In this document: piece after piece, positions 3,880 to 33,097 of the stretch
How the letters are laid out: every line of letters begins with the position of its first letter
Numbering within the stretch: position 1 is the first letter of the stretch
Assembly: GCA_030696315.1 (NCBI GenBank)
Contig: JAUYSM010000116.1
Coordinates: 1-41,582, forward strand
Direction: 5' to 3'
Length of the DNA stretch: 41,582 bases
DNA from: Pseudohongiella sp.
GTDB taxonomy: Bacteria > Pseudomonadota > Gammaproteobacteria > Pseudomonadales > Pseudohongiellaceae
Notes under the pieces: model-generated
The model's database searches: none
What the model saw: only the letters and a program-made list of their open reading frames with translations
Told to the model about the DNA's origin: nothing
Position numbers and translations under genes: made by a program

Positions 3880-3903
3880 GGGGAGCCTCGGCTCCCCTTT
3901 TTA
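3880..3903 (+). terminator. Rho-independent terminator after the redoxin/PHM-like gene
   Basis: GGGGAGCC (3880-3887) pairs with GGCTCCCC (3890-3897) and is followed by a T-rich tract at 3898-3903; an A7 run precedes the stem. It starts 28 nt after the stop codon, a classic intrinsic terminator. Confidence 0.92.
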
Positions 3904-4020
3904 TTTAAGATCACTGTGGGTTATTTAAGATCACAGTGGATTATTTAAGATCACTGTGGATTATTTAAGATCACCCTGGGTTATGTAAAATTACTGTGGC
4001 TTATTCAGGCTCGCAGCTGT
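3901..4020. repeat. 20-bp tandem direct repeat, about six decaying copies
   Basis: Six consecutive 20-bp units begin at 3901, 3921, 3941, 3961, 3981 and 4001. The consensus is TTATTTAAGATCACTGTGGN. The first three copies differ at one to three positions, the fourth at a few, and the fifth and sixth decay progressively. The array fills the entire gap between a terminator and the start region of the serine hydrolase gene. Units are two helical turns long and could act as stacked binding sites, or be a slippage-generated minisatellite. Confidence 0.9.
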
Positions 4021-10318: not shown

Positions 10319-10349
10319 GGCGCTCTTACCTCAAATTTTTTCCCAAAGA

Positions 10350-10363
10350 TGACAGTATTGTCA
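10350..10363. promoter_or_regulatory. Palindrome TGACA-N4-TGTCA upstream of the persulfide dioxygenase gene
   Basis: TGACAGTATTGTCA, 32 nt before the minus-strand ATG, is a two-fold symmetric site of the size bound by dimeric regulators. It could equally contain an isolated Pho half-site (TGTCA), but it does not have the 11-bp phasing of the two arrays downstream. Confidence 0.3.
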
Positions 10364-10457
10364 CAAAAATCACTAAAAGACATCTCCAAACTTGTCAGTT
10401 TTGTTTCCTACTTTATTGTTTTTTATGGGTTATCCCTTTGAGCATATTGGCTTGTCA

Positions 10458-10486
10458 GGGTCATTCTTTCGTCACCAATCTGTCAC
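10458..10486 (+). promoter_or_regulatory. Pho-box-like array, three half-sites, upstream of lipoprotein/TBDT
   Basis: GGGTCAT (10458-10464), TCGTCAC (10469-10475) and CTGTCAC (10480-10486) are three heptamers related to the PhoB half-site CTGTCAT, each separated by exactly 4 bp (11-bp period). PhoB dimers bind head-to-tail with this spacing and replace the -35 contact. A TAT-containing -10-like element follows at about 10503. The array lies about 145 bp before the lipoprotein ATG, so the remaining 5' leader would be long. The rest of the 314-bp gap (10319-10632) shows no gene. Confidence 0.6.
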
Positions 10487-10632
10487 GCGCTGCGGGCAAC
10501 AATATCGCACCGCGTCGTAATGGCGTCCAGTGCCATCGGGGCACGCACGTTTAGGTCTGCATCGGCACTTTAACCGACCAGGCAACATGAATCGACTAAG
10601 AATAGATATCCAGACAAGGAGTAATTGAAAAA

Positions 10633-12282
10633 ATGAACATCAAAGCCCTGTTCAGTGTCAGCCTGCTTGCAGCCGCAGTAACCGCATGTGATGGTGGTGG
10701 AGTGACACTGGCGCCAACAACGTCTGTTGCCAATTCCAACAATTCCACAGTAACCAATCCAGCCGGTCCTGCGCCCGTTGTGAATCCTTGTGCCAGTTAC
10801 ACGGTGTCTGGTCAATCTGTTCAGGGTGCATTCAGTGGCAATAACTGCACTTACTCCAACACCTTTGTGAGCGATACCCGTCCGCTGACCACTGATCTGG
10901 TGATTAACGCACTGCCAAACAATGGCCTGCACATTTTCCAGGACAGTTTGTTTGTTGGTCGCGATATTAACGCCAACTCAGCAGCTCAGGGTGTGCGTAT
11001 CCCTCAGGATGGTGAAGGCCCCAGCTTGACCATTGGTGCCGGTTCACGCATTGCCTTTCAGAATCCGGAAGACTACCTGCGCGTTGCACGTGGATCACGC
11101 ATTATTGCTGACGGCACCCGTCAGGCGCCTATTATATTCAGCGCTGTGAAAGACTTGCGTGATGGTCAGGCTACTCAGGCAGATCGTGGGTTGTGGGGTG
11201 GTGTCCAGATCAACGGCAACGGTATCACTAACAAGTGCACCGACGCTGACCGAGCGGCAACATCCAACAACGTTCACAATTGCCACGTAACCGCAGAAGG
11301 CCGCCCGGCCAGCTACGGCGGAAATAATAACGCCGAGAACTCTGGCATCCTGCGTTATGTGCAGATTCGTCACGCCGGTTATGAAGTCGTAGACGGCAAT
11401 GAGTTGAATGGTTTGACGCTGAACGGCGTGGGTGCAGGCACGACGTTGGAATACGTGCAGACCTACACCACACTTGACGACGGCATCGAAATGTTTGGTG
11501 GCGCGGTTGATCTGAAGTACACCGTTAACGTCAACGTTGGCGATGACTCAATCGACTTCTCTGAAGGCTGGGTAGGCGACATTCAATTTGCTTTGATCAT
11601 TCAGACTTCAGGCTCCAACCGTTGTATCGAAGCCGATAACACAGGTGACACACTGCCTGACAATATCGCTCCGTTCACCAAAGGTCGTATCTCAAATATG
11701 ACTTGTATCACCTCTAATGTCAGGACTAACGCAGGCACTGCTCCCAGTTCTAAAGGTGATGCAGAAGGCCCGCTGTTCCGCGAAGGTTCTTACTTCGAAT
11801 TGTACAACTCCATCATCACCTCAAATGCCACCGGCATGGCGAGTCAAGAGTGTTTCGAAATTGAACACGCTCAAACCGTCGCTGGCGTGCAATCGGGTTT
11901 CTCAGTGGCTGCCGGCAACGTGGTGGCCTGTACCGAAGCGCTGAAAATTGCTTCCAGTGCCGGTCTTGATTTGCGCGCCTGGTGGCTGAACGGCGGCAAC
12001 GCAGTGGTTGATGCCACAGCAAACTTGCCTGCAACCGTCATTACTGGCCTGAGCCCGGCCACCCCGCGTGCCTACATTACTGCTCCGGCGATGACAACGG
12101 CAACGGGTGCGGCGATTACTGTGCCCGTGTTTGACGTGAGCCGTCTGCGCGATAACTTCTCAGCTGCGGCAGTGCCGTCACTGGGTGCAGCAGGCAGCAG
12201 TTCATTCTTCAACGCAGTTGACTTCATCGGTGCAGTAAAAACCGGTCAGGACTGGGTGTCAGGCTGGACAACAGGCCTGTAA
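10633..12282 (+). CDS. Large surface-type lipoprotein linked to TonB receptor/T2SS
   Basis: A 549-residue lipoprotein; lipobox LLAAAVTAC has Cys19 as the lipidation site, followed by a Gly/Ser/Thr/Asn-rich linker to about residue 50. The body is rich in Asn, Gly, Thr and short hydrophobic strands (for example LTIGAGSRIAFQ, RGLWGGVQINGNG, ILRYVQIRHAGYE, NGLTLNGVGAGTTLEYVQT). This fits a right-handed parallel beta-helix like those in pectate-lyase-fold proteins. Several Cys pairs suggest disulfides. AAGGAG lies 11 nt before the ATG. It is directly followed by a TonB-dependent receptor and then gspC-N under a Pho-like box. It may be a T2SS-exported surface lipoprotein or the receptor's ligand-capturing partner; both are inference. 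Confidence 0.7.
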   Translation: MNIKALFSVSLLAAAVTACDGGGVTLAPTTSVANSNNSTVTNPAGPAPVVNPCASYTVSGQSVQGAFSGNNCTYSNTFVSDTRPLTTDLVINALPNNGLHIFQDSLFVGRDINANSAAQGVRIPQDGEGPSLTIGAGSRIAFQNPEDYLRVARGSRIIADGTRQAPIIFSAVKDLRDGQATQADRGLWGGVQINGNGITNKCTDADRAATSNNVHNCHVTAEGRPASYGGNNNAENSGILRYVQIRHAGYEVVDGNELNGLTLNGVGAGTTLEYVQTYTTLDDGIEMFGGAVDLKYTVNVNVGDDSIDFSEGWVGDIQFALIIQTSGSNRCIEADNTGDTLPDNIAPFTKGRISNMTCITSNVRTNAGTAPSSKGDAEGPLFREGSYFELYNSIITSNATGMASQECFEIEHAQTVAGVQSGFSVAAGNVVACTEALKIASSAGLDLRAWWLNGGNAVVDATANLPATVITGLSPATPRAYITAPAMTTATGAAITVPVFDVSRLRDNFSAAAVPSLGAAGSSSFFNAVDFIGAVKTGQDWVSGWTTGL

Positions 12283-12386: not shown

Positions 12387-15065
12387 ATGAAAAAAACTTT
12401 GAATTGGCAGAAGCGTGAACTGGCGTTGGCCGTGGCTCTGGTAGTGGCCGGCCCAACATTGTTTCCTTCGGCAGCAATGGCCCAAGATGCGAGCGCAACG
12501 CAGGTAGCACCGCCACAGATAGATGAAATTGTGGTGATGGGTCGACTTCGCGATGCTGCACGTTCTATTGTAATGGAGCGTGTTGAACAGCCGTTTGCCG
12601 CCGAAATTGTGGGTGTAGAACAAATTTCTCGCGCGGGTGATTCGGATGTGGCCATGGCTCTTCGTCGTGTTACCGGACTCACGCTGGTGGATGGCAAGTA
12701 CATTTATGTGCGCGGACTTGGCGAGCGGTATTCCAGTGCGACATTAAATGGCGCAGAGATTCCCTCGCCGGAGTTGAGCCGCAACGTAATTCCGCTGGAT
12801 TATATTCCTGCATCTATCCTCGAATCAGTAAAAATCCACAAAGCATACTCAGCCGACCAGCCTGCTGCGTTTGGCGGCGGTAACGTAGATATCCGCACAC
12901 GCGGCACACCTGACGATCTGGTGTTTGACGTGTCTGTGGGCACTGGCTGGGACTCTGAGAGTTCAGGCAAAGGCTTGCGAAATCTGGGTGATCAGGGCGA
13001 TATGCCAGTATCCATTCGTGATGCACTGAACAAGTACCAAGGTGATATTAGTCCATCGAACATCACACGTTTTGAATTCCCCGGCACGGGCACACCAACG
13101 GCCGCTCAACAGGCTGCCGGCATTCAGATCAACCGTGAATTGATGCGCGCATTAAATCGCGATATTGGTATAGAAGCGGAGCGCTCCTTAAAGCCTGATA
13201 CCAATTTCTCTGTCACAGCGGGTAATGCCTGGGATGTTTCCAACGACTTGTCAGTGGGCGCACTTGCCAGTGTCAGCATCGGTGAATCAACACGCAACGC
13301 CGACCAGTTTGAACGCACGTTTTCAAATCCGGAAGAGTCTTTCAGTGACATTCGCCGCACGTTCACCAATGACAGCTTGACTGGCGCCGTGAATCTCAGC
13401 GCCACCTGGCAGGATCGTCACACAATCGGCACTAACAGCTACTTGCTGCAGGATGATGAAGATCTGTCGTCCATCGTGCTTGGGTTTAACCCCGACTTCC
13501 AGCAGGCTGGCGGCCGTCAGCGTCGTACCAATGAAACCCGTCTGGAAAAGCGCGAACTGGAAGTGCATCAGTTGACCGGTGAACACCGTTTTGAGCGTTA
13601 TGATCTGGACCGTTTTAATATGCCGGCATTTTTAGAGTCCATTACCGGCATTGATGTGAACTGGTTCTATTCAGATGCCAGAGCGGGCACCAGTGTGCCT
13701 AACGGTACCTCCGTACAAGGCACCAATTTGCTGAATCCGGCAACGGACGAAGTATTGTTGACTCAGGTAAACACGGGTTCATCTGCACAGTTCTCATTTC
13801 TTGATCTTGAGGACAGCGTCGAAAGCATGGGGTACCAGGTTGATGCACAATTTGACCTCGGTTTCACCAACGGGACCGTCAGTGGCGGCTACACGCGCAG
13901 TAATAAGGCACGTGAGTATTACGGATATACCGCCAATATCGTGATGGGCGCAGTGGGTCGTGATGGTCTGCCGTCACAGGTGTTTGGAGACCAGAATCTG
14001 CAAGACCTGACAAATGGTTTTTTCCTGAGCATGGGCTCTAATTTCGGCACAGAAAGTTACATCGCCGGCGAAACCAAAGCTGCAGCATTCGGTTCTGTTG
14101 ATGCGTTTTTTATGGATAACTGGCGCGTTACCGCGGGCCTGCGTTGGGAAGATTTTTCTCGTGGTGTGATGCCATTGGATTTGCTTGATTACACAGGCGA
14201 TTCACTCAACGCGATTATTGAAAAAATGAATCTGCCAGATCAGAACTATGCGCTGCGTGAAGACGATTATTATCCGGCAGCAGCACTGACGTACATGCGA
14301 GATGGCTTGTTTGGCACGGATAATTTCCAGATCAGACTTGGTTACGGTAAAACCGTGGTGCGTCCTGATTTGCGTGAATTTGCTGACATTCAGTTCATCG
14401 ACCCCGAGTTGAATGACCGTGTGCAAGGCAACCCCAACCTGAAGTTCTCAGAGATCGACCATATCGATCTTCGAACCGAGTTGTTCTTCGACAACGGTGA
14501 TAACCTGACGGTGTCTTTGTTCCACAAAGATATCAGTAATCCTATCGAACGCATTCAGCGCCCCGGTCCTCAGGATGGTCGCTTGCTGAGTTTCGAAAAC
14601 GCACTGGCGGGTGAGATCTACGGAATAGAGTTTGAGGGTTTAAAAAATATCGGTCGCGGATTCTTTGTCAGTGGCAACGTGGTATTGAGTGATTCCGAAA
14701 TCAGTTTTAACGAAGCCGCCTCACAAACCAGTCTGCAGCGTCGCTTGACCGGTCATTCTGAATACGTGGTAAATACCCAATTGGGTTTTGACTCGGACAA
14801 TGGCAAACACTCCGCATCTATGTTGTACAACGTGTTTGGCGAGCGCATTTTCTACGGCGGACGTTCACCCTCTCCTGATGCCTACGAAAGTCCGTTCAAT
14901 TCATTGGATCTGACGTATTCATACTTCCCCACCGATAGGATTACGCTGCGCCTGCGAGCACAGAACCTGTTGGGCGAAGACCGAGAGTTCCTGCAGGATG
15001 ACGTCAAAATCATCGAAGTCGACAGTGGCACTCGCGTACGTATGGACTTGCAATGGAAGTTCTGA
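12387..15065 (+). CDS. TonB-dependent outer-membrane receptor
   Basis: An 892-residue outer-membrane protein. The signal peptide ends near SAAMAQ (about residue 31), followed by DEIVVMGRLRDAA, a TonB-box-like segment. The plug domain (about residues 60-180) contains IYVRGLGERYSSATLNGAEIP, VIPLDYIPASILESVKIHKAYSA and FGGGNVDIRT. The rest is a beta-barrel ending in LQWKF, with the terminal aromatic needed for BAM recognition. It imports a substrate using TonB-ExbBD energy. The ligand cannot be read from the sequence, but its place between a lipoprotein and gspC, under Pho-like control, suggests phosphorus-containing compounds or products released by secreted phosphatases. gspC begins within its last codons. 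Confidence 0.88.
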   Translation: MKKTLNWQKRELALAVALVVAGPTLFPSAAMAQDASATQVAPPQIDEIVVMGRLRDAARSIVMERVEQPFAAEIVGVEQISRAGDSDVAMALRRVTGLTLVDGKYIYVRGLGERYSSATLNGAEIPSPELSRNVIPLDYIPASILESVKIHKAYSADQPAAFGGGNVDIRTRGTPDDLVFDVSVGTGWDSESSGKGLRNLGDQGDMPVSIRDALNKYQGDISPSNITRFEFPGTGTPTAAQQAAGIQINRELMRALNRDIGIEAERSLKPDTNFSVTAGNAWDVSNDLSVGALASVSIGESTRNADQFERTFSNPEESFSDIRRTFTNDSLTGAVNLSATWQDRHTIGTNSYLLQDDEDLSSIVLGFNPDFQQAGGRQRRTNETRLEKRELEVHQLTGEHRFERYDLDRFNMPAFLESITGIDVNWFYSDARAGTSVPNGTSVQGTNLLNPATDEVLLTQVNTGSSAQFSFLDLEDSVESMGYQVDAQFDLGFTNGTVSGGYTRSNKAREYYGYTANIVMGAVGRDGLPSQVFGDQNLQDLTNGFFLSMGSNFGTESYIAGETKAAAFGSVDAFFMDNWRVTAGLRWEDFSRGVMPLDLLDYTGDSLNAIIEKMNLPDQNYALREDDYYPAAALTYMRDGLFGTDNFQIRLGYGKTVVRPDLREFADIQFIDPELNDRVQGNPNLKFSEIDHIDLRTELFFDNGDNLTVSLFHKDISNPIERIQRPGPQDGRLLSFENALAGEIYGIEFEGLKNIGRGFFVSGNVVLSDSEISFNEAASQTSLQRRLTGHSEYVVNTQLGFDSDNGKHSASMLYNVFGERIFYGGRSPSPDAYESPFNSLDLTYSYFPTDRITLRLRAQNLLGEDREFLQDDVKIIEVDSGTRVRMDLQWKF

Positions 15066-15970
15066 ACATCAAGACGATGTCTGTGGTCAAGACGGCAAGC
15101 CTGCTGGCAACAGCTGGCTTGCTGGCCTGGTCAGCTGCACACGTGGCAGGTCTGATCTGGCATGTTGTGGCGCCTGATGTCAGTGTGTCAGCCACCGAGA
15201 CAGTGTCTGATGTTCACCTGGTGTCTGCGGCTATGTCTGCGTCAACCGGCAGCATTGACCTTGAACGTTTGCAGTCGGTGTTTGCATTGCAGGCACCCGG
15301 CCAGCGTTTCGTGGCAGATACCCAAAGCAGTATTGACATGACGGCAGAGCAAACGCGTCTGTTGTTGACATTAAAGGGCGCGGTGCTCAGCAGCGATCCC
15401 GCGTATTCGCGCGCTATTATTGCCAGTGGTGATAGCCAGCAGGGTTACAAACCGGGAGACAGCATTGCTGACATGCCCGGCAGCGTGGTTCTGCAAGCGG
15501 TCTATCAGACCTATGTGTTGCTTGATAACAACGGTCGCACTGAAACTTTGCGCATGGATGATGTGCAGGCAAGTCCCGGGACGCCGTCACGCAACCCTAC
15601 GCAGTCGCTAGATCTGCAGCGCTCGGACTCCCCTGAAGCGATCAACACAGCATCGGTGCCAGCCGGAAAATTTTCTGATCAGTCTTTTTCTGATCTGGTG
15701 CGCATACAGCCGGTGTTTGAAGCTCAGGACAGCAAGAATGCGGGCGCACTACGTGGCTTACAGATCCGCCATGGCAGTCGTCAGGATTTCCTGAGCGCAG
15801 CAGGTTTGCGTCAGGGGGATCTGATTACGGGTGTCAATGGCACCTCTCTGGATAACCCGGCACAAATACCGCAGTTGATGCAGCAATTATCCTCTGCCCA
15901 ATCAGTCACTTTGCAAGTGTTGCGCGATCAGCAAGTGGAGAACGTGCATCTTGATCGCACGCAGTGGTAG
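15053..15970 (+). CDS. gspC: Type II secretion inner-membrane protein GspC
   Basis: A 305-residue bitopic protein. There is one N-terminal transmembrane helix (about residues 12-35), then the periplasmic homology region (about 85-170, LLLTLKGAVLSSDPAYSRAIIAS...YKPGDSI) that contacts the secretin N0 domain. The C-terminal PDZ-like domain is at about 225-300 (GLQIRHGSRQDFLSAAGLRQGDLITGVNG). The chosen start overlaps the receptor gene by 13 nt; an ATG 24 nt later (MSVVKT) is a plausible alternative. Coupling to the receptor gene, with the rest of the gsp genes behind a separate regulatory array, is unusual. Sequence identity to model GspC proteins seems low outside the motifs. Confidence 0.85.
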   Translation: MEVLNIKTMSVVKTASLLATAGLLAWSAAHVAGLIWHVVAPDVSVSATETVSDVHLVSAAMSASTGSIDLERLQSVFALQAPGQRFVADTQSSIDMTAEQTRLLLTLKGAVLSSDPAYSRAIIASGDSQQGYKPGDSIADMPGSVVLQAVYQTYVLLDNNGRTETLRMDDVQASPGTPSRNPTQSLDLQRSDSPEAINTASVPAGKFSDQSFSDLVRIQPVFEAQDSKNAGALRGLQIRHGSRQDFLSAAGLRQGDLITGVNGTSLDNPAQIPQLMQQLSSAQSVTLQVLRDQQVENVHLDRTQW

Positions 15971-15988: not shown

Positions 15989-16050
15989 CTGTCATCGTTC
16001 TGTAATATAGCGGTCACATCGCTGTCACATCTGAGTCATACCATTGTCAT
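15989..16050 (+). promoter_or_regulatory. Pho-box array with six phased half-sites upstream of gspD
   Basis: Six heptamers follow one another, each separated by exactly 4 bp: CTGTCAT (15989), CTGTAAT (16000), CGGTCAC (16011), CTGTCAC (16022), GAGTCAT (16033) and TTGTCAT (16044). They match the PhoB half-site CTGTCAT at 5-7 of 7 positions, the first perfectly. The strict 11-bp period over 62 bp is the hallmark of tandem PhoB dimers. The last half-site ends 56 bp before the gspD ATG. This predicts phosphate-starvation induction of gspD-N. PhoB itself is not in the window, and the resident response regulator is of a different subgroup. Confidence 0.85.
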
Positions 16051-16106: not shown

Positions 16107-18110
16107 ATGACTTTCAGCATGACCCCCAAAAAAATCTTACTAAGCCTTGCGGCAAGCATGTCAATGCTGTTTGTCATGAATGTGTTTGCTCAGGACATTA
16201 CCTGGACGCCGAATTTCCGAGACAGTGATGTGTTGGAAGTGATCAGAGCGGTGCAGGATGTGACGGGCAAAACCATGATTATTGATCCACGGGTACAGGG
16301 TCAGATTACGGTGATGAGTAACACGGCCGTCGATGCTGATGCGTATTATCAAATCTTCTTGCGCGCGCTTGATCTCAGTGGTTTTACCGCGGTTGAAACC
16401 GGCAACAATATGGTCAGTATTCTGCCCACTCAGGACGCACGAGCCGCACCCTTGCCGTTTGCCGACTTCAGTGCCAGCGACAGCAGCCAGTATGTTACCG
16501 AAGCGTTTTATCTTGAGAACGTGTCTGTTGCTCAGGTGTTGCCTGTGCTGCGTCCATTGGTGTCACAAAGCACTGGACAGATGTCTGCGTATCCAGCGGG
16601 TAACATGATTTTGTTGGTTGATACAGTGGCCAATGTGGAACGCATTCGTCAGATTCTGCAACGTATCGATCAAAGCTCCATTCCAGAAACCGACATGGTC
16701 AGACTGCAGTTTGCCAGCGCACTTGATATGGTGGCATTGCTGCGTGATCTGCAGGAAGAACGTGCGCCAACAGAGGAGGAGCCGGTCAGCACACGTTTGC
16801 AGATTTCTGCTGATGAGCGCACTAACTCTGTGTTGATCACCGGTGGGCGGCGACAGCGCGAAAACATCCGCGAGCTGGTTGCCCTGCTTGATCAGCCACG
16901 TGAACAAAACGGCAATACCCGGGTTGTCTATCTTGAGTACGCTAACGCTTCGCGCGTTGCAGAAGTGCTGAGTGCCGTGGTGCGTGATCGGTTTGGACTG
17001 TCAACTGACGATACACAAAACACGCAGCCGCGACAGGCTAGTATTCAGGCTGATCCGGATAACAACGCCTTGATCATTACCGCCGACCTTGATGTGGTGG
17101 ATTCACTGATGGATGTAGTACAGCGCCTTGATATTCAACGCGCACAAGTACTGGTCGAAGCGATCATTGTTGAAATCAACGACGACGTCGGCCAGAACCT
17201 CGGCATTCAGTGGTTATTCCGGGATGACAGTGGCGGTTTTGCCAGTAGCTTTGATGCCGGTAATAATCTTCAGCAACTGGGACTGGTTACGGAAGGCGCG
17301 TTGTCCGATGATCGACGTGATGCCCTCACCGGGCTGGCAGCGGGTCTTGCCGGTGTCGCCGGGCAAAGTATCGGCATAGGACGCCTGGGCGGCAGCACAG
17401 ATCTGATGGCATTGATTGATCTGCTGCAGGCCAACAGCGGCGCCAATATCTTATCGACACCCAATATTCTCACGACCGATAACAGCGAAGCTGTGATCAC
17501 CGTGGGTGAAAGTGTGCCATTTGTCACGGGTTCGTTTACCAATACCGGTGGTTCGGGCAGCGTCCAAAACCCCTTTCAGACCATCAATCGCCAAAACGTC
17601 GGTACAACCTTGCGTGTTACTCCCCATGTCAATCGCGGTGATCGCGTTGCGCTGGACATCAGTCAGGAGATCTCCAGCATTTCTCCCAAAGCAGGCGCTG
17701 TTGATCTGATCACCAATGAGCGAAAGATTGAGACCCGTGTCACGGTTGCTGATGGCGAAACCGTAGTGCTGGGCGGACTGATACGTGACAACGTCATTCA
17801 AACTGAGCAGCGTGTGCCCTTACTTGGCAGCGTGCCGGGAATCGGACGACTGTTTCGTTCGCAATCCAGCAGTGTGCAAAAAACCAACCTCTTGGTATTT
17901 ATTCGGCCCACCATTTTGCGTGATGACGATGCGCTGCGTGGTGCCACGGCTGAAAAGTATCAGCTGATCCGTGATCAGCAATTGCAGCAAACCCCGCTCA
18001 GTGGCTGGTTGTTTGATGAAGATGACATGCCGGTACTGCCTGCTTGGGAATCAACGAGGTCTGGTCAGGTTGGCGCAGAGGATGCCCGCACCCTGCAGAC
18101 TGAGCCGTGA
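16107..18110 (+). CDS. gspD: Type II secretion outer-membrane secretin GspD
   Basis: A 667-residue secretin with signal peptide cleavage near NVFAQ (about residue 29). N0 begins ITWTPNFRDSDVLEVIRAVQDVTGKTMIIDPRVQG. N1-N3 repeats follow (YLEYANASRVAEVL, ADPDNNALIITADLDVVDSLMDVVQRLD). The secretin core contains VPFVTGSF...VGTTLRVTPHVN and the C-terminal VPLLGSVPGIGRLFRS. It oligomerises to form the outer-membrane exit channel. AAAGGA lies 6 nt before the ATG. There is no obvious pilotin-binding S-domain extension and no gspS nearby, so the targeting factor is unknown. It stands first behind the six-site Pho-like array. Confidence 0.95.
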   Translation: MTFSMTPKKILLSLAASMSMLFVMNVFAQDITWTPNFRDSDVLEVIRAVQDVTGKTMIIDPRVQGQITVMSNTAVDADAYYQIFLRALDLSGFTAVETGNNMVSILPTQDARAAPLPFADFSASDSSQYVTEAFYLENVSVAQVLPVLRPLVSQSTGQMSAYPAGNMILLVDTVANVERIRQILQRIDQSSIPETDMVRLQFASALDMVALLRDLQEERAPTEEEPVSTRLQISADERTNSVLITGGRRQRENIRELVALLDQPREQNGNTRVVYLEYANASRVAEVLSAVVRDRFGLSTDDTQNTQPRQASIQADPDNNALIITADLDVVDSLMDVVQRLDIQRAQVLVEAIIVEINDDVGQNLGIQWLFRDDSGGFASSFDAGNNLQQLGLVTEGALSDDRRDALTGLAAGLAGVAGQSIGIGRLGGSTDLMALIDLLQANSGANILSTPNILTTDNSEAVITVGESVPFVTGSFTNTGGSGSVQNPFQTINRQNVGTTLRVTPHVNRGDRVALDISQEISSISPKAGAVDLITNERKIETRVTVADGETVVLGGLIRDNVIQTEQRVPLLGSVPGIGRLFRSQSSSVQKTNLLVFIRPTILRDDDALRGATAEKYQLIRDQQLQQTPLSGWLFDEDDMPVLPAWESTRSGQVGAEDARTLQTEP

Positions 18111-18120
18111 GGCTGACGCA

Positions 18121-19611
18121 ATGAGCCATGCCCAGAACCAGATTCGCTTGCTGCCATTCGAGTTTGCCCAACTGCACGGTGTGTTATGGGATGGCGAAGC
18201 ACTGTTGTGCCGCCAGACCCCTGCATTGCCTGTACTGCTTGAGCTGCGTCGAGTATTGGGCAGCGGTCTGCAGTGGCATCTGAGCGATCCGACCACGTTT
18301 CAACAGACGCTAACTCGCTTGTATCAGAGTGGGGCCGATGCTGCCCAACGAGCCGCTGAAGATCTGGACGATGACTTTGACCTGGATGCCTTGGCTGAAG
18401 AAATTCCGCAACACAGCGATTTGTTGTCTGGCGCAGAAAATGCGCCCGTCATCCGTTTGATCAATGCGCTGCTGTCACAAGCGGTGCGTGAAAAAGCGTC
18501 TGACATTCATATCGAACCTTATGAGCGCAAGGTATCAGTGCGCTTTCGGGTAGACGGTGTACTGCGCGATGTGTTGGCACCCAAAGCTGAATTGGGGCCG
18601 GTGCTGGTATCACGATTAAAAGTGATGGCGCGATTGGATATTGCTGAAAAACGCTTGCCGCAGGATGGCCGCATCAGCGTGCGTCTGGCGGGTCACGCGG
18701 TGGACATTCGTATGTCCACTATCCCGTCTAGTTTTGGTGAACGCGTGGTGTTGCGTTTGCTTGATCAGGCGGCCGGTCAATTGCAACTTGATCAACTGGA
18801 TCTGCCGCCGGCGATGCAAACCGCCTTGCAACGCGCTTTGCATAAACCACATGGCATCATTCTGGTCACCGGTCCCACCGGTTCCGGCAAAACCACCACG
18901 CTTTATGCCGGGCTGCAACACATCAACAGCCGGGAACGTAATATTCTGACCATTGAAGATCCGGTCGAGTATCAATTGCCTGGCATTGGCCAGACCCAGG
19001 TGAATACCAAAGTTGATATGAGTTTTGCGCGCGGATTGCGTGCTGTGCTGCGGCAAGATCCGGATGTGGTGATGGTGGGCGAGATACGCGATCAGGAAAC
19101 GGCAGCCATTGCGGTGCAGGCGTCTCTGACCGGACACCTGGTGTTATCGACTTTGCATACCAATACCGCTGTGGGTGCAGTAACGCGCTTACAGGACATG
19201 GGTATAGAACCTTTCCTGCTGGCATCCAGCCTGACTCTGATTGTGGCTCAGCGTCTGGTGCGCAGTGTGTGCCCTGAATGTCGGCAAGCGCGCACGATTG
19301 ATCTGACTGAAAGCACTCGCTTGCAATTGCCTGCCGGTAGTACGGTGTTTGACGCTGTGGGCTGTGAACTCTGCAATCACACGGGATATCGCGGTCGAAC
19401 CGGTCTGTACGAAGTGATTGAGGTTGATGCGCCACTGCGCAGACTGATTCATGACGGTGCCGGTGAGCAGGCGCTTGAACACTATGCCCGTCAGCATAGC
19501 GCGTCAATTTATGAACACGGCCGACAACGTATTCTCAGCGGCCAGACCACTGTAGAAGAAGTGCTGCGAGTCACCAGTCTCTCCGAAGATGTTCAGGGTG
19601 GCACACGATGA
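18121..19611 (+). CDS. gspE: Type II secretion assembly ATPase GspE
   Basis: A 496-residue cytoplasmic ATPase. The N1E region (about 1-80) is followed by the secretion ATPase core: Walker A GPTGSGKTTT (251-260), Asp box, Walker B VVMVGEIRD and a His box in LSTLHTNTA. The Zn-binding tetracysteine is CPECR (384/387) with CELCN (415/418). It drives pseudopilus assembly through GspL and GspF. GAGG overlaps the gspD stop and lies 8 nt before the ATG. The reading frame is open further upstream, but that part overlaps gspD and has no family similarity. The gene overlaps gspF by 4 nt (ATGA). Confidence 0.96.
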   Translation: MSHAQNQIRLLPFEFAQLHGVLWDGEALLCRQTPALPVLLELRRVLGSGLQWHLSDPTTFQQTLTRLYQSGADAAQRAAEDLDDDFDLDALAEEIPQHSDLLSGAENAPVIRLINALLSQAVREKASDIHIEPYERKVSVRFRVDGVLRDVLAPKAELGPVLVSRLKVMARLDIAEKRLPQDGRISVRLAGHAVDIRMSTIPSSFGERVVLRLLDQAAGQLQLDQLDLPPAMQTALQRALHKPHGIILVTGPTGSGKTTTLYAGLQHINSRERNILTIEDPVEYQLPGIGQTQVNTKVDMSFARGLRAVLRQDPDVVMVGEIRDQETAAIAVQASLTGHLVLSTLHTNTAVGAVTRLQDMGIEPFLLASSLTLIVAQRLVRSVCPECRQARTIDLTESTRLQLPAGSTVFDAVGCELCNHTGYRGRTGLYEVIEVDAPLRRLIHDGAGEQALEHYARQHSASIYEHGRQRILSGQTTVEEVLRVTSLSEDVQGGTR

Positions 19612-20828
19612 CCGCGCTGCGCTACAAGGCGCTGGACTTGCAGGGGCGCACAGTCACGGGTGTCATGGAAGCCGATGATGAGCGCCAGTTGCGTCAGCGT
19701 CTGCGCCAGCAAAATCTGCGGCCCTTGATGGTCACTGTCGCGACAGGCATGGAGAACGGTTCCGGTTTAAGCCATCTTCTTAAACCTCGCCGCCACCTGT
19801 CCGTCAATCAGTTATCACTGTTAACACGTCAGCTGGCGTCACTGATCAAATCCGGCTTGCCGGTGGATGAAGTGCTCAGGCTGACCTCAGAACAAAGCCG
19901 TGGTGATCATATCAAAGGCCTGTTGGCGCAAGTGCGCTCACGCGTCATGGAAGGCCAGTCCCTGGCACAGGCCATGAGTGAGCATCCTGGCGCCTTTGAT
20001 CGCATGTATTGCGCCATGGTGCGCGCGGGTGAAAGCGCCGGCTTTTTGGGTGAGGTACTGGAACGACTGGCATTGCATACCGAAAGCAGTCAACAGACCC
20101 GCCAGAAGTTGCAGACCGCACTGATTTATCCACTGGTATTGATGGGCGTCAGCATCAGTGTTGTGGTGTTGTTAATGACTTTTGTGGTGCCGCGGTTGGT
20201 GAGCATGTTTGCCAGTTCCAATCGTGACCTGCCCGTGCTGACGCAAGTGCTGATCAGTGTCAGTGACTTCTTCCGCTCCGGCTGGGCATTGCTGTTGCTG
20301 GTTGCAGTGCTGGCTGCAATTGCTGGTTTTAAAGCATGGCTGCGTCGTTCCGATAATCGCTTGACGTGGCATAGCCTGCTGCTGCGGGTGCCCGGATTGA
20401 GCAACACTTTATTGCAGATGGATTGCGCACGCTTTGCCTCTACGATGGCTATTTTGTTGGGCAGTGGTGTTCCGCTGCTTGATGCGCTACGCATTGCATC
20501 CGAGGTCTTGAACAATGAGCAGCTTCGGCGTAGTGCGCTGGCGGTCGCCGGGCGTGTACAAGAAGGTGCATCGTTCAGCAAGAGCTTACAGCAGGAGGAA
20601 GTTTTCCCTGCATTGCTGGTGCAAATGGCCGCCAACGGAGAGGCCAATGGCACGCTGGCAACACAGTTGGATTATGCCGCCGGATGGCAATCACGTGAAT
20701 TGGATGTGCGCCTCGGTACCCTGATGGCATTGCTGGAGCCGCTCACCATCGTGCTGATGGGCGGGTTGATTACCTTGATCATGCTGGCGGTGTTGTTGCC
20801 GGTTTTTGATATGAGTTCGCTGATTTAG
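19608..20828 (+). CDS. gspF: Type II secretion platform protein GspF
   Basis: A 406-residue polytopic inner-membrane protein with the duplicated T2SSF domain. Copy 1 (about 65-190) begins LSLLTRQLASLIKSGLPVDEVL and contains MVRAGESAGFL; copy 2 (about 265-400) contains FASTMAILLGSGVPLLDALRI and MAANGEANGTLATQLD. Three transmembrane helices lie near 170-195, 220-240 and 375-400. It couples GspE to pseudopilus assembly. It starts inside the end of gspE (ATGA) and is followed by gspG after 15 nt. Confidence 0.96.
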   Translation: MTALRYKALDLQGRTVTGVMEADDERQLRQRLRQQNLRPLMVTVATGMENGSGLSHLLKPRRHLSVNQLSLLTRQLASLIKSGLPVDEVLRLTSEQSRGDHIKGLLAQVRSRVMEGQSLAQAMSEHPGAFDRMYCAMVRAGESAGFLGEVLERLALHTESSQQTRQKLQTALIYPLVLMGVSISVVVLLMTFVVPRLVSMFASSNRDLPVLTQVLISVSDFFRSGWALLLLVAVLAAIAGFKAWLRRSDNRLTWHSLLLRVPGLSNTLLQMDCARFASTMAILLGSGVPLLDALRIASEVLNNEQLRRSALAVAGRVQEGASFSKSLQQEEVFPALLVQMAANGEANGTLATQLDYAAGWQSRELDVRLGTLMALLEPLTIVLMGGLITLIMLAVLLPVFDMSSLI

Positions 20829-20843
20829 ACAAGCAGGGATTTG

Positions 20844-21287
20844 ATGATGATGACAAAAAACCGTGGGTTCAGTCTGATTGAAATACTGGTGGTGTTGGTA
20901 ATCATGGGGCTGCTGGTCAGCATCATTGCGCCCAATGTGCTGGGCCGGGCCGATGAGGCGCGCGTTCAGAAAGTGTTTGCTGATTTCAGTGCAATTGAAA
21001 CGGCGCTCAGACTTTACCGACTCGACAATTATGCTTACCCCAGCAGCGAACAAGGTTTGCGCGCGCTGCAAGAGCGACCGACATTGGCGCCGGTACCCGC
21101 AAACTGGCGGCAAGGCGGCTACCTTGAATCACTGCCCATAGATCCTTGGGGCAATCCCTATCTGTATCTCAGCCCCGGGCAGCAGGGCGACTACGATATT
21201 TTCAGTTATGGTGCGGATGGTGTGCGTGGCGGTGAAGGCCAGAACGCTGATCTTGGCAACTGGCAGGACAACACCCTGCAGGAATAA
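20844..21287 (+). CDS. gspG: Major pseudopilin GspG
   Basis: A 147-residue prepilin-like protein. The type III signal is KNRG/FSLIEILVVLVIMGLLV: cleavage after Gly, Phe+1 and Glu+5. The C-terminal half has the GspG signature YAYPSSEQGLRAL, DPWGNPYLYLSPG and DIFSYGADGVRGGEGQNADLGNW, the calcium-binding loop of major pseudopilins. It is processed by a prepilin peptidase (GspO/PilD), not encoded here. Three consecutive ATGs follow a TTG; AGGGA lies 4 nt before the first and 7 nt before the second, and the choice does not affect the mature protein. Confidence 0.96.
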   Translation: MMMTKNRGFSLIEILVVLVIMGLLVSIIAPNVLGRADEARVQKVFADFSAIETALRLYRLDNYAYPSSEQGLRALQERPTLAPVPANWRQGGYLESLPIDPWGNPYLYLSPGQQGDYDIFSYGADGVRGGEGQNADLGNWQDNTLQE

Positions 21288-21293
21288 GCGCTG

Positions 21294-21881
21294 ATGAAGC
21301 TATCTTGTAACCCACGCCTGAGCCACGGTCTTACCCTGATTGAAATGCTGGTGGTGTTACTGATTATGGGTCTGCTGGTCAGTGTCACCGCATTGTCGAT
21401 GGGCTTGACCGGCCGTAACGATACAGACGAGGCCGTCCGCACCGCTGAAGACCTGAGCCGTTTGTTTGAGCATGCTGCTCAGCAGGCATTGGTCAAAGGC
21501 GAAGTGCTGGGCTGGAGTCTGAACAACAATGCAAACCAGCCTATGCAATGGTGGCGTTGGACATCGGACACGCTCGGCAATAACACAATCAATGTGGCAT
21601 CAAATAACCTGACAGGCGCATATTGGCAACGCCAGCCAGAGTCGTTTATGCCAACGCTGGCGGTTCCAGCACAACTGATGTTGCAATTGGCGGATTTACA
21701 CACTCAAGTCCCAGCGTCTGCCTCACAAAACCGCCAGACTGACACCGGGCCGGCGGTGGTGTTTTTGCCGGGCCGTGAATCTGTTCCTTTTGAACTGCGC
21801 CTGCTTGATGCGCAAACACAGCAGTCGCTCGCGCGCATCTGGTCCACCGATCAGGGGCATATTGCCTGGAGCGCGCTGTGA
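21294..21881 (+). CDS. gspH: Minor pseudopilin GspH
   Basis: A 195-residue minor pseudopilin. The leader is SHG/LTLIEMLVVLLIMGLLVSVTAL, with Leu at +1 instead of the usual Phe but Glu at +5 conserved. The body fits GspH: AEDLSRLFEHAAQQALVKGEVLGWSL, and late PFELRLLDAQTQQSLARIWSTDQGHIAW. It sits at or near the pseudopilus tip. It starts 6 nt after gspG and ends in a 4-nt overlap (GTGA) with gspI. Assignment is by position and N-terminal motif; the globular domain is poorly conserved in this family. Confidence 0.9.
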   Translation: MKLSCNPRLSHGLTLIEMLVVLLIMGLLVSVTALSMGLTGRNDTDEAVRTAEDLSRLFEHAAQQALVKGEVLGWSLNNNANQPMQWWRWTSDTLGNNTINVASNNLTGAYWQRQPESFMPTLAVPAQLMLQLADLHTQVPASASQNRQTDTGPAVVFLPGRESVPFELRLLDAQTQQSLARIWSTDQGHIAWSAL

Positions 21882-22324
21882 ACCGACAAATGCCAATCCG
21901 TCGATCTGTTTTGCAGCAGGGGTTTACCCTGATCGAAGTGATGGTTGCGCTTCTGGTTTTAGGTATTGCACTGCCTGCGCTAATGTTTCAACTGGGGACG
22001 CAGCTTGATGGCACTCAGGTGATCAATGATCGTACCCAAGCGGCCTGGGTTGCACAGGACCAGCTGGTGTTGCTGCAACTCAGACAAGCGTCCGGTGAAA
22101 ACCTGTCTGCGGGTGAATGGCAGGGTGAGGTACTCAATGCGGGGCGTTTGTGGTATTGGAAGCGCAACGCCGAGCCAACACCGGCGCCGGGTTTGTTGCG
22201 GCATACCATCAGGGTTGCTGATGAACTGCGTGATCTCTCCAGCGCGGACACCGCGCTTGTCAGCCTGGATGCCTACTTGATGACAGGTGCTTCCGGCATT
22301 CCGGGCACAGGCGGAGCTCCATGA
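21878..22324 (+). CDS. gspI: Minor pseudopilin GspI
   Basis: A 148-residue minor pseudopilin. The leader QQG/FTLIEVMVALLVLGIALPALM has Glu+5, followed by the GspI-type continuation with AAWVAQDQLVLLQLR. It is part of the I-J-K tip complex that initiates pseudopilus assembly. The start is taken as GTG overlapping the gspH stop (GTGA), consistent with the rest of the operon; an in-frame ATG 12 nt later would leave a shorter but still adequate leader. It overlaps gspJ by 4 nt. Confidence 0.92.
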   Translation: MNRQMPIRRSVLQQGFTLIEVMVALLVLGIALPALMFQLGTQLDGTQVINDRTQAAWVAQDQLVLLQLRQASGENLSAGEWQGEVLNAGRLWYWKRNAEPTPAPGLLRHTIRVADELRDLSSADTALVSLDAYLMTGASGIPGTGGAP

Positions 22325-23040
22325 GCATCACGGTTGCAGAAGCACGTGGCTTTACACTCATCGAACTGCTGATTGCTATGAGCCTGACCGTGTTGATTGG
22401 CGCCATCAGTTATCAGTTTCTGGATGCGTCTATCCGGGTGCAATCACAAGGTGACGCGGCATTAAAGTCTTTAACGGCGATTGAACAGACGTGGCAGCTC
22501 ATCGCCGCCGATATGCAAAACAGCATTGATAGACCGGTGGGTAAACCTGCCGTGGGGGCAGACCTGCTGTCAGTGCTTGATACCGGCAGCAATGGGCAAG
22601 GTCGTCGTCCTTCCATGATGAGTGCACAATTTAATAATGTGTGGTTATCAGCGCTTCTGGGCAGAGAAGGTGCGCTGCTGTGGTTTCCCCGTCACGGGTG
22701 GGTCAATCCGCTTGAGCAACAGCGCTCCGGGATTCAGCGAGTGGTATACCGACTGGACAATAATGGCAGTTTGTTCCGGGACTACTGGTCTGAGCGCAAC
22801 CAACTTTTTTCGTCTGCGCCTGAAGGCAGTTTGATGTTGCTGGAGAATGTACAGGCAATCAGCATCACATTTTTGCCGCAAGGGCAGCATCCCGATACCG
22901 AGTGGTTGCCATCATGGCCGCCGTCCTTGGTGCAAGTTGATGAAACTGAAGTCCATGGGTTGCCGGCCGCCCTGAAGGTGTCTTTGCAAACCGCGGAACT
23001 GGGTCGGGTTGAGCGCATTTTCCTGTTGGCGGGGGTTTGA
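22321..23040 (+). CDS. gspJ: Minor pseudopilin GspJ
   Basis: A 239-residue minor pseudopilin with leader ARG/FTLIELLIAMSLTVLIGAISY and Glu+5. The body contains the GspJ pattern: LTAIEQTWQLIAADMQNSIDRPV, then QRVVYRLDNNGSLFRDYW and LLENVQAISITFLP, with ALKVSLQTAELGRVERIFLL near the end. It forms the tip complex with GspI and GspK. It overlaps gspI by 4 nt (ATGA) and is followed within 10 nt by gspK. Confidence 0.94.
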   Translation: MSITVAEARGFTLIELLIAMSLTVLIGAISYQFLDASIRVQSQGDAALKSLTAIEQTWQLIAADMQNSIDRPVGKPAVGADLLSVLDTGSNGQGRRPSMMSAQFNNVWLSALLGREGALLWFPRHGWVNPLEQQRSGIQRVVYRLDNNGSLFRDYWSERNQLFSSAPEGSLMLLENVQAISITFLPQGQHPDTEWLPSWPPSLVQVDETEVHGLPAALKVSLQTAELGRVERIFLLAGV

Positions 23041-23050
23041 TGGTGGCGCC

Positions 23051-24136
23051 ATGTTGATGAATGGAACACAGCACAAATCTTGTCGGCAACAGGGTAGTGC
23101 GCTCATTCTAGCCTTGTTGATTGCGGCGATGGTGTCGTTGATGTCCGTGCGTTTTGCCGAGTCGTTTATGTTGCAGCTGGCGTGGACTGAATCGCAGGAT
23201 GATGCTCGCCTGCTGGCTGTCTATCTCAGTGGTGCCGAGCAGTTGGCTGCGCAACTGTTATCAGCGGACGCAGCCAGCAGTCAGGCTGACAATATCGATC
23301 ACGAGCAAGAAAGTTGGGCGCAGCCAGTGCCCATGCTGCCCACCGACCACGGATGGCTGCAGGTTCGCATTAGCGATGCGCAGTCATTGTTTAACCTGAA
23401 CAATCTGGGTATTAAAACAGCATACAGTGATGATAGCGGTGCACCTTTAACTGTGCGGTTTTCGCCAGCACAAAAACAGTTTGTGCGCTTGCTGCAAAGT
23501 TTTGAAGATTATCCAATCAGCGAAATTGATGCGGTGCTGATGACCGAAGCCTTGATAGACTGGATTGACGAAGACGATCAAACCACGGGGCAAGGCGGTG
23601 CTGAGTCACTGTATTACAGCAGTGCAGGCCAGAGTCTGGCGTCATCAAGAGGACTGATGTCACCGGACAGTTCCATTCAGGCCGCCAATCAAGCGTTGTT
23701 TGATATCAGTGAACTGTATCTGATCAGACACTTTACACCGGGCATCGTTGAGCGACTGCGCCCCTGGGTGGTTGTGCTGCCCGAGCCTACTGCGCTGAAT
23801 ATCAATACCGCTCCGCCAAAATTATTGGCCACCATGAATCAGCCGCAGATTCTTCAGCCGTTGGCGGTGAACGATGTGCAGACTCTTTTACAGTTAAGAC
23901 AAGCGGGGGTGTTTGCCAACATCAACGACTTTTTTAATTCACCTGACCTGCAGGCGCTGCTTCCAGAGGTAGAAACCAGCAGTGGAAGTACAGACACGGC
24001 CTTGTATTCTGTGAATAGCGATTGGTTCCTGTTACACAGTGCTGTGTCAGTCAATGACCGCCGGTCGCGCTGGGTTTCATTGTTGGCCAGATCAGAGCAA
24101 CAGACCAGGGTTTGGGAAAGACACCGGGCTTATTGA
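23051..24136 (+). CDS. gspK: Pseudopilus tip protein GspK
   Basis: A 361-residue large minor pseudopilin. The leader RQQG/SALILALLIAAMVSLMSVRFA lacks Glu+5, as is normal for GspK and needed for its tip position. The body contains ADNIDHEQESW, ISDAQSLFNLNNL, a disordered loop, EALIDWIDEDDQTTGQGGAESLYY (calcium-binding acidic loop) and LNINTAPPKLLATM with a helix-hairpin-helix-like region. The start is the ATG following GGTGG; an ATG 6 nt later is equally compatible. The gene ends 22 nt before the proposed gspL start. Confidence 0.93.
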   Translation: MLMNGTQHKSCRQQGSALILALLIAAMVSLMSVRFAESFMLQLAWTESQDDARLLAVYLSGAEQLAAQLLSADAASSQADNIDHEQESWAQPVPMLPTDHGWLQVRISDAQSLFNLNNLGIKTAYSDDSGAPLTVRFSPAQKQFVRLLQSFEDYPISEIDAVLMTEALIDWIDEDDQTTGQGGAESLYYSSAGQSLASSRGLMSPDSSIQAANQALFDISELYLIRHFTPGIVERLRPWVVVLPEPTALNINTAPPKLLATMNQPQILQPLAVNDVQTLLQLRQAGVFANINDFFNSPDLQALLPEVETSSGSTDTALYSVNSDWFLLHSAVSVNDRRSRWVSLLARSEQQTRVWERHRAY

Positions 24137-24158
24137 ACAGTCCTCATGGGGTTTTAAA

Positions 24159-25481
24159 TTGAAAACAACACAACTTTGGGTACAGCTGGTTTCATTAGAC
24201 CATGCGTCGGCCGCTGCGCCTGATAACGCGCCTGTGCAGGCGCGATGGTGCCTGATGCAACAACAATTGCAGACACAGCAGCAGGGCAGTCTTGTGCAGC
24301 TTGTTGACTGGCTGCATGAGCGGAACTTGCCCGATGCAGGTGGTCTGCACACGGTGCTGCTGATGTCAGGGGATATGCTCGTGACACGTCAGCTGACTTT
24401 TCTGGCAAAAGAGCGCAAACACCTGCAACGAATGTTGCCGTTTATGCTGGAGCCAGAGTTGGCTGCGGATGTGTCGCAGGTGCATGTCGCTCATGGACAG
24501 CCTCGTGTTACAGGTGAATCAGGCCAAGTGAGTGTTGCCTATATCGACAAAAAAACATTACAGGCAGCGATACAGACACTGGAAGACATGGGTCTGGAGC
24601 TGGAGGAAATCTACGCCATTCCTGCTGCGCTGCCCGCATCTCAAAGCCAGTGGACCTTGTTGGTCGATGGTGATGTATGTCACGTGCATGCCGGCAGCGT
24701 GTTGTGTGCCAGCGTTGAACATGCGCTGGTATTACCACTGCTAGAGGCTGCTTTGGCTGAGCAAGGTAAAACGCACACACCTCAATGTTTACAAGTGCTT
24801 GTCAGTAACGCAGAGCAGACATCACCTGCGCTGCAGCCGCTGTGTCAGTCGCTGCTTGACCATCCCGGCATTTTGAAGAGCGGCATGCGCGTGACGCAGC
24901 AAAGTATTCAGCAAGTCTGGTCTGATTTGATACTGCAAGGCGATGATCTGGTGAATGTAAGGCAGGGTGAGTTTGCGGCACCGTTACGCATTGCCAAATA
25001 CTGGAAACCGTTGCGCACACCGGTGATTGCTGCCATGTTGGCTGTATGTGCCGTGGTTGGCAGCGTGTTTGTTGAGACCACAATCAACCAGCGTCGCTTT
25101 CAAGCACTGGAAAATCAGGTGCAGCAACGCTATCGTGAAGTGATGCCGGACGGCGTGCTGGTTGATGCTGTGCAGCAACTGACCACCCAGTTGACACGAT
25201 TCAGAGCCGCCGAATCAACGCCCGGTCCCGTCACCATGTTAAATGCCATGCTGGATGCGTTTGAGAGTACCGGAAATTTGAATCTGCATCGATTGAGCTA
25301 CAGCAGCAGTGACCAGAACAGTTCCGAATTACAGATGAGCATCAGTGCGCCTACCACTGCTGAGATTCTTGAACTGAGTGAAAAGCTCGGCGTTGGTGGC
25401 TGGACAGCGCAAGCGCAGAACATCACGCGCGCAGGTGATCTGCAACAGGCAAATCTGATTGTGAGAGGTAACGGATTTTGA
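24159..25481 (+). CDS. gspL: Type II secretion inner-membrane protein GspL
   Basis: A protein of about 440 residues: cytoplasmic actin-like domain (about 1-285), one transmembrane helix (PVIAAMLAVCAVVGSVFVE, about residues 288-306) and a small periplasmic ferredoxin-like domain. The cytoplasmic part binds GspE, and the periplasmic part binds GspM. The start is inferred: no ATG in frame fits between the gspK stop and the first conserved segment. The TTG at 24159 (LKTTQLWVQLV) after a GGGG is the best candidate, so translation may be deliberately weak. The frame is open upstream through the end of gspK, without family similarity. It overlaps gspM by 4 nt (TTGA). Confidence 0.87.
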   Translation: MKTTQLWVQLVSLDHASAAAPDNAPVQARWCLMQQQLQTQQQGSLVQLVDWLHERNLPDAGGLHTVLLMSGDMLVTRQLTFLAKERKHLQRMLPFMLEPELAADVSQVHVAHGQPRVTGESGQVSVAYIDKKTLQAAIQTLEDMGLELEEIYAIPAALPASQSQWTLLVDGDVCHVHAGSVLCASVEHALVLPLLEAALAEQGKTHTPQCLQVLVSNAEQTSPALQPLCQSLLDHPGILKSGMRVTQQSIQQVWSDLILQGDDLVNVRQGEFAAPLRIAKYWKPLRTPVIAAMLAVCAVVGSVFVETTINQRRFQALENQVQQRYREVMPDGVLVDAVQQLTTQLTRFRAAESTPGPVTMLNAMLDAFESTGNLNLHRLSYSSSDQNSSELQMSISAPTTAEILELSEKLGVGGWTAQAQNITRAGDLQQANLIVRGNGF

Positions 25482-26020
25482 CAGCCGTCGTAACAAGCTT
25501 AGTAACAAGGTTTAAGCGCTACCTGGCACGTTGCACACGACGTGAGCAAATGTATTTGCTGACAGCAGCCGTGCTGTTGACGTTGACCGCGGGATGGTTG
25601 CTGGTTTGGCAGCCGGTGTTTAACGCGCGCGCGGCGTCTGAATCCAGACTTCAATATGCAGAGCAGAACCTGGCTCAGGTCAACACGCTGGCTGCCGAGC
25701 TGGCGGCGTTACGCAATGACATGTCAGAGGCTTCCACGCAGGCAACCTCCGTACAGCCATTGCCACAGGTGTTGAATACACTGGCCGCACAGATTGGGTT
25801 GCCCGTTTCTTCTCTCGAACCTGCGGCCGACAATCAGAGTGCAGGTGTCAGGTTTGATGCGGTGTCGATGCCCCTGTTGCTGGCGTGGCTGGCTGAGCTG
25901 GAGTCCACACCTGGAATACATGTTGAGCAACTGACACTGTCACCTGCCAGTGGTAGCAATGTGGCGGGCGATGCAGGCCCGGTCAATGCCAGTCTTCGGG
26001 TGCGAGGAGTGACACGGTGA
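25478..26020 (+). CDS. gspM: Type II secretion inner-membrane protein GspM
   Basis: A 180-residue bitopic protein: a short basic cytoplasmic N-terminus (CTRREQMYLLTAAV), one transmembrane helix (about 26-45, ending LLVWQPVF), a coiled-coil-prone stretch (about 50-85) and a ferredoxin-like domain (SVQPLPQVLNTLAAQIGLPVSSLEP...MPLLLAWLAELE). The RREQ...WxPxF pattern is typical of GspM, which stabilises GspL. The start is TTG overlapping the gspL stop, with AGAGG 9 nt upstream; the next in-frame ATG would delete the cytoplasmic segment. Confidence 0.9.
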   Translation: MTAVVTSLVTRFKRYLARCTRREQMYLLTAAVLLTLTAGWLLVWQPVFNARAASESRLQYAEQNLAQVNTLAAELAALRNDMSEASTQATSVQPLPQVLNTLAAQIGLPVSSLEPAADNQSAGVRFDAVSMPLLLAWLAELESTPGIHVEQLTLSPASGSNVAGDAGPVNASLRVRGVTR

Positions 26021-30827: not shown

Positions 30828-30847
30828 GCGCTGAAAGGACCTGATTC

Positions 30848-33058: not shown

Positions 33059-33097
33059 TCATTCAGTTCTCACGAGATATCGCGACGGGGATCTTCC

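What the first reader, a model, noticed from the sequence alone, without database searches (positions are those of the whole stretch)
15989..16050. Six-half-site Pho-box array driving a type II secretion operon
Six CTGTCAT-like heptamers sit at 15989, 16000, 16011, 16022, 16033 and 16044, each exactly 11 bp apart. This is an unusually long PhoB-type array directly before gspD. Pho control of a whole T2SS core predicts a secretion machine dedicated to phosphorus scavenging (for example phosphatases or nucleases) rather than general exoenzymes.
Basis: partly seen in the sequence, partly recalled or inferred. Interest (0 to 1): 0.9.

Follow-up and report, generated by a model that had tools for sequence, protein, structure and literature searches.

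The report
Phosphate-starvation promoter inside secretion operon
A Pseudohongiella-like bacterium carries what looks like a phosphate-starvation switch in the middle of a protein-secretion operon; such secretion systems are already known to respond to phosphate hunger, but this internal switch is present in only part of the genus and its far end lies over the promoter itself.

Summary
The six 11-bp-phased CTGTCAT-like heptamers at 15989-16050 are real and beyond chance (0 of 300 shuffles; only period 11). The same kind of box precedes phoU, a PstS-like gene, a Na/Pi cotransporter and PhoD in this genome, which has a PhoB orthologue. The array sits between gspC and gspD of an ElpS-like lipoprotein / TonB receptor / gspC-N locus, the gene order reported for Caulobacter crescentus, where ElpS is phosphate-starvation induced and the T2SS is in the PhoB regulon. 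A separate Pho box precedes the elpS-like gene in 11 of 11 readable genus genomes; the gspD array is in 7 of 15, and in the other 8 gspC and gspD nearly abut. So it is most likely a second Pho promoter, for gspD-N, gained or lost once within the genus. Half-sites 1-4 fit as activator boxes: a -10 (TACCAT, 16039-16044) lies 10 nt after half-site 4, the usual spacing in the pho promoters compared. Half-sites 5-6 overlap the -10 and probable start; they may be core promoter or a PhoB site that caps expression. A second T2SS elsewhere shows no comparable array. No expression or binding data exist here.

The parts
15989..16028 (+). Half-sites 1-4, two tandem Pho boxes: proposed PhoB activator sites of gspD
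   Evidence: TGTCA tracts kept while spacers vary in 7 genomes
16033..16050 (+). In-phase half-sites 5-6, overlapping the -10 and probable start: core promoter and/or a capping PhoB site
16039..16044 (+). Proposed -10 TACCAT, 10 nt after half-site 4
   Evidence: invariant in 7 of 7 genomes
16107..26901 (+). gspD, E, F, G, H-like, I, J, K, L, M, N
   Evidence: Pfam and NCBIfam; the H-like ORF 21294-21881 matches only the N-methylation motif
15053..15970 (+). gspC, upstream of the array
   Evidence: T2SSC 66 bits
12387..15065 (+). TonB-dependent receptor
10633..12282 (+). ElpS-like lipoprotein (lipobox-like Cys19); named by gene order, not compared with Caulobacter ElpS itself
   Evidence: no Pfam or PDB match
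10458..10486 (+). Pho half-sites before the elpS-like gene (strong pair 10469-10486); -10-like AACAAT at 10498-10503

Best explanation
The array is a PhoB-activated promoter inside an elpS-TBDR-gspC-N locus. When phosphate runs low PhoR phosphorylates PhoB; PhoB~P fills two tandem boxes (half-sites 1-4) and recruits RNA polymerase to the TACCAT -10 lying 10 nt further on, so gspD-N is made. The elpS-like lipoprotein, TonB receptor and gspC are driven by their own Pho box, so a surface lipoprotein, an outer-membrane importer and the secretion machine rise together to free and take up phosphorus. Shown here by sequence: the array, its phasing and conservation, the -10 geometry, the second Pho box, the gene order, a PhoB orthologue. 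Inferred: binding, induction, operon limits, substrates.
For: 0 of 300 shuffles and period 11 only; best PWM site in the window; array before gspD in 7 of 15 genus genomes with TGTCA tracts kept while spacers change; PhoB orthologue over the NCBIfam cut-off, 54% identical to E. coli PhoB; same boxes before PhoU, Na/Pi cotransporter, PstS-like protein and PhoD; -10 spacing as in the other pho promoters; Pho pair before elpS in 11 of 11 readable genus genomes; Caulobacter precedent (PMC2996285 parts 1-2 and passages; PMC11208175 section 11).
Against: No expression or binding data. 8 of 15 genus genomes lack the gspD array. Half-sites 3 and 5 are weak by the E. coli PWM. [quoted passage not shown] About half of the genome's two-site box matches are expected by chance (35 against 19 for the reversed pattern).
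Confidence: 0.75

Rival explanations
1. All six half-sites are ordinary activator sites and the promoter lies downstream of half-site 6.
For: All six heptamers are in phase and invariant or nearly so in seven genomes; two further in-phase heptamers of this quality are unlikely by chance.
Against: The hexamer 10 nt after half-site 6 is ACCTTG (score -12.0; best at 9-12 nt is 0.0), while TACCAT after half-site 4 scores 5.2; half-site 5 scores -0.5 bits.
Confidence: 0.12
2. Another OmpR/PhoB-family regulator uses the array, for example the PmrA/QseB-like regulator encoded at 32396-33058 in the same window.
For: The genome holds 62 matches to the PhoB model, of which one is over the cut-off; OmpR-family regulators often bind tandem repeats (general knowledge).
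Against: The sites match the PhoB consensus and the E. coli PhoB PWM and the same boxes precede phosphate genes.
Confidence: 0.07
3. The array is not regulatory: chance or leftover repeat.
For: Absent from 8 of 15 genus genomes; simple pair counts in the window are not significant.
Against: 0 of 300 shuffles for the whole array; conservation of cores against spacers; same scores (32.1-34.9) in all 7 genomes that have it.
Confidence: 0.03

Closest known systems
elpS (cc0170) - TonB receptor (cc0171) - gspC-N locus of Caulobacter crescentus (PMC2996285; PMC11208175)
   Same: Same gene order; lipoprotein upstream; [quoted passage not shown]
   Different: Here a strong Pho array also lies between gspC and gspD.
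Hxc T2SS of Pseudomonas aeruginosa (PMC9769906, passages)
   Same: A second, phosphate-linked T2SS beside another one.
   Different: Different neighbours (ElpS-like and TBDR rather than LapA/LapB); in P. aeruginosa proteins of both systems rise at low phosphate.
E. coli pho promoters: phoA, pstS, and phoB with its repressing site at the -10 (PMC6194859, passages)
   Same: 11-bp half-site phase; -10 ten nt after the box in phoA and pstS; pstS also has in-phase half-sites beyond the -10; phoB has a reported PhoB site at its -10.
   Different: Four upstream half-sites and a secretion operon as target. The phoB repressing site is on the other strand with a different spacing, whereas half-sites 5-6 here are on the coding strand in the exact 11-bp phase.

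Membership tests
PhoB (Pho box) regulated promoter | Tandem CTGTCAT-like half-sites every 11 bp | tested here: met
PhoB (Pho box) regulated promoter | -10 about 10 nt after the last activator half-site | tested here: met
   for half-site 4 only; half-site 6 fails
PhoB (Pho box) regulated promoter | PhoB present in the genome | tested here: met
PhoB (Pho box) regulated promoter | PhoB~P binding and phosphate-dependent expression | not testable with these tools
   needs bench work
ElpS-TBDR-T2SS locus (Caulobacter type) | Lipoprotein, TonB receptor and gspC-N in this order | tested here: met
ElpS-TBDR-T2SS locus (Caulobacter type) | Lipoprotein homologous to ElpS (cc0170) | tested here: inconclusive
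   Caulobacter ElpS was not available to compare; relatives of the window protein stand before TBDR and gspD in 7 of 20 regions fetched after the phylum search, all 7 from same-phylum, other-class genomes
ElpS-TBDR-T2SS locus (Caulobacter type) | Induced by phosphate starvation | not testable with these tools
   Pho pair before elpS in 11 of 11 readable genus genomes is indirect support
Hxc-type phosphate T2SS | Secretes a linked alkaline phosphatase (LapA) | tested here: not met
   Pfam scan of 30 window ORFs between 1040 and 34504, the T2SS genes and their neighbours included, named no alkaline phosphatase; the ORFs beyond 34504 were not scanned
phoB-type autorepression site at the -10 | PhoB half-sites overlapping the -10 | tested here: met
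   by sequence only
phoB-type autorepression site at the -10 | Expression falls at high PhoB~P | not testable with these tools
   needs graded PhoB expression

The most novel reading that the evidence does not exclude
A single continuous 62-bp PhoB array acts as accelerator and brake: half-sites 1-4 switch the secretion operon on at moderate PhoB~P, and the in-phase half-sites 5-6, laid over the -10 and start, cap it when PhoB~P is high, so a costly secretion machine is made fast but not in excess. This would extend the activate-then-repress layout reported for E. coli phoB to a structural operon; by sequence the same layout is seen at E. coli pstS and at the porin-like promoter of this genome.
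Probability: 0.22. Interest if true: 0.55.

Novelty: new variant of a known kind. Interest (0 to 1): 0.38.

Why it matters
It links a Pseudohongiella-like group to the phosphate-starvation ElpS/T2SS strategy described in Caulobacter, shows a second Pho promoter inside the operon in about half of the genus genomes held, and gives a precise, cheap test of whether in-phase PhoB half-sites that run over a -10 limit expression. A specialist would find it neat rather than surprising, since phosphate-controlled T2SSs are known.

Tried and rejected
AlphaFold2 of the ElpS-like protein from 8 sequences gave mean pLDDT 28.4: discarded, no fold search made. Sequence searches of it in the PDB and Pfam gave no match. 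That the array belongs to every orthologous locus was rejected. That sites 5-6 are pure accident was judged unlikely but is not excluded. A Pho pair before gspD was sought in 7 distant loci: 1 of 7 reached P 0.005 (L209, 214 nt before the gspD start, about within the gspC match) and was not taken as a promoter. The only paper listed for Pho box, type II secretion and gspD together (PMC3511308) mentions GspD only in passing, about Tad pili (passage). My first tree summary compared the array genomes with the outgroup only; repeated with the right groups.

Full report
Setting. The window is contig C75 of a 3.96-Mb, 117-contig genome. Its GspD is 97% identical to that of MAG UBA6173 and 92% to that of strain LSUCC0112; several related records are titled Pseudohongiella. 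LSUCC0112 is a cultured Gulf of Mexico strain (PMC6606908, abstract in the listing only). The genus name for the window is my inference.

Observation. The six-site score of 34.9 was reached by 0 of 300 shuffles and only period 11 works; a two-site box alone would not be significant (23 of 300), nor is the count of simple pairs in the window (9 against 4.66 expected; 7 of 100 shuffles as many). A PWM from 17 half-sites of five E. coli promoters ranks the place first in the window for 2, 3, 4 and 6 sites, but half-sites 3 and 5 are weak.

Anatomy. Upstream of gspD lie a lipoprotein gene, a TonB-dependent receptor gene and gspC; downstream gspE to gspN. The array is thus inside the locus, after gspC. 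A three-half-site array (strong pair 10469-10486) precedes the lipoprotein gene. I call that gene elpS-like from gene order; Caulobacter ElpS itself was not compared.

Regulator and regulon. The genome has one PhoB over the NCBIfam cut-off among 62 matches, 124 of 228 positions identical to E. coli PhoB, beside a histidine kinase ORF and on the same contig as phoU. A two-half-site pattern with up to one mismatch gave 35 matches against 19 for the reversed control, so about half may be chance. I examined 24 of the 30 loci returned; those outside long ORFs with a start close by include PhoU, a Na/Pi cotransporter, a PstS-like binding protein, PhoD and, by weaker evidence, a metallophosphoesterase (Pfam), plus a PstC-like and a porin-like protein named by eye (no Pfam match). 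Others of the 24 lie inside ORFs or head unrecognised genes. A TonB-receptor gene has five further in-phase half-sites.

Promoter geometry. In ten reference promoters (seven of this genome, PhoX of relative G031, E. coli phoA and pstS; picked because the gene was recognisable) the mean -10 score peaks 10 nt after the second half-site (+2.5; every other distance from 2 to 25 gives -2.6 or lower). Ten nt is best in 7 of 10, 11 nt in 2, and nptA does not fit. The elpS-like promoter fits at 11 nt (AACAAT, 3.8). In gspD the rule picks half-site 4 and TACCAT at 16039-16044 (5.2); half-site 6 gives ACCTTG (-12.0). Across seven genomes half-sites 1-4 keep 5, 3, 4 and 5 of 5 TGTCA columns with spacers 0, 0, 2 and 2 of 4 invariant, whereas at half-sites 5-6 heptamers (7 and 7 of 7) and following spacers (4 and 3 of 4) are nearly all invariant. 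A core promoter overlapping 5-6 predicts this. Yet heptamers scoring 4 or more make up 2.0% of the window's positions and 6 or more 0.06%, and only 2 of the 10 reference promoters (E. coli pstS, the porin-like gene) have two such in-phase sites downstream (both 4 or more). E. coli phoB has a reported repressing PhoB site at its -10 (PMC6194859, passages), so a braking role is open.

Distribution. Of 15 genus genomes (own included) 7 have the gspD array (scores 32.1-34.9). The other 8 score 12.9-15.7 in the same place and their gspC stop and gspD start lie within a few tens of bases. In a tree of the 15 GspD proteins one branch parts the 7 from the 8 (100/99). With three distant rows added the 8 hold together (81/100) but the 7 do so in only 32% of bootstraps, so one gain or one loss fits and the direction is open. 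A Pho pair before the elpS-like gene was found in 11 of 11 genus genomes whose contig reaches that far (4 of 15 do not), each with at most 1 of 200 shuffles as good. ElpS-like proteins match in 132 of 390 genomes of the order. In the 20 best loci outside the genus, a TonB receptor follows in 20 of 20, no gspC or gspD match lies in the 10-kb stretch in 20 of 20, and a Pho pair precedes in 15 of 20 at P 0.03 or less, in the other 5 not. Across the phylum 51 of 398 genomes match; of 20 regions fetched from 19 of these, a TonB receptor follows in 17, gspD lies downstream in 7, and a Pho pair before elpS reaches P below 0.05 in 10 (4 of the 7 with gspD). So Pho control of the elpS side is widespread, and the gspD array was seen convincingly only in this genus.

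Second T2SS. Three gspD-model matches exceed the cut-off: this one, C21 (608.9 bits) and C61 (371.5 bits; not examined, perhaps a pilus secretin). C21 carries T2SS families C, D, E, H, I, K, L and M among 10 ORFs scanned. Its 17-kb stretch holds no comparable array (best pair 9.5 and 10.4, best four-site 13.0 and 14.9 on the two strands, against 24.4 here). A Pho-linked and another T2SS side by side recall Hxc and Xcp of P. aeruginosa, where proteins of both rise at low phosphate (PMC9769906, passages).

Literature. PMC2996285 (parts 1 and 2 of 6 and passages): Caulobacter elpS, TonB receptor, gspC-N order; ElpS made under phosphate starvation; the T2SS needed for its release rather than its surfacing; ElpS probably not itself a phosphatase; and, against a strict switch, gspE and gspL expressed in rich medium with a 1.7-fold rise in poor medium. 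PMC11208175 (section 11): the T2SS is among 47 direct or indirect PhoB genes. Searches for phosphate control of a T2SS or a Pho box at gspD (listings, with some papers opened as stated) showed me no report of an internal gspD Pho promoter; only the held open-access library was searched.

Verdict. Most likely a real, conserved Pho promoter of gspD-N in an ElpS-type locus: a known strategy with an internal promoter that part of the genus has.

Noticed in passing
window 3901-4005: Five copies of a 20-bp direct repeat (TTATTTAAGATCACTGTGGA-like, about two helical turns) just after a terminator-like hairpin and before a beta-lactamase-family ORF; unexplained.
   Followed up: partly
window 10349-10366 (minus strand): A two-half-site Pho-like box stands before the divergent metallo-beta-lactamase-fold/rhodanese gene 9278-10318, back to back with the elpS-side box.
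   Followed up: partly
window 27849-31705: Downstream of the T2SS: a thermostable-hemolysin-family gene followed by AMP-binding, haem-oxygenase-like and short-chain dehydrogenase genes, then a PmrA/QseB-like two-component pair at 32396-34504.
   Followed up: no
L190-L195 and other matches: Many relatives of the ElpS-like protein are about 900-1290-aa ORFs with two or more ElpS-like stretches, suggesting duplication.
   Followed up: no
G000:C5:17027-17077 (L139, L163): A porin-like gene has a five-half-site Pho array running past its -10, matched also in G023, G025, G028 and G029.
   Followed up: partly
L003 (G000:C106:62705-62755): Five in-phase Pho half-sites before a TonB-dependent receptor gene with a Plug domain.
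   Followed up: partly
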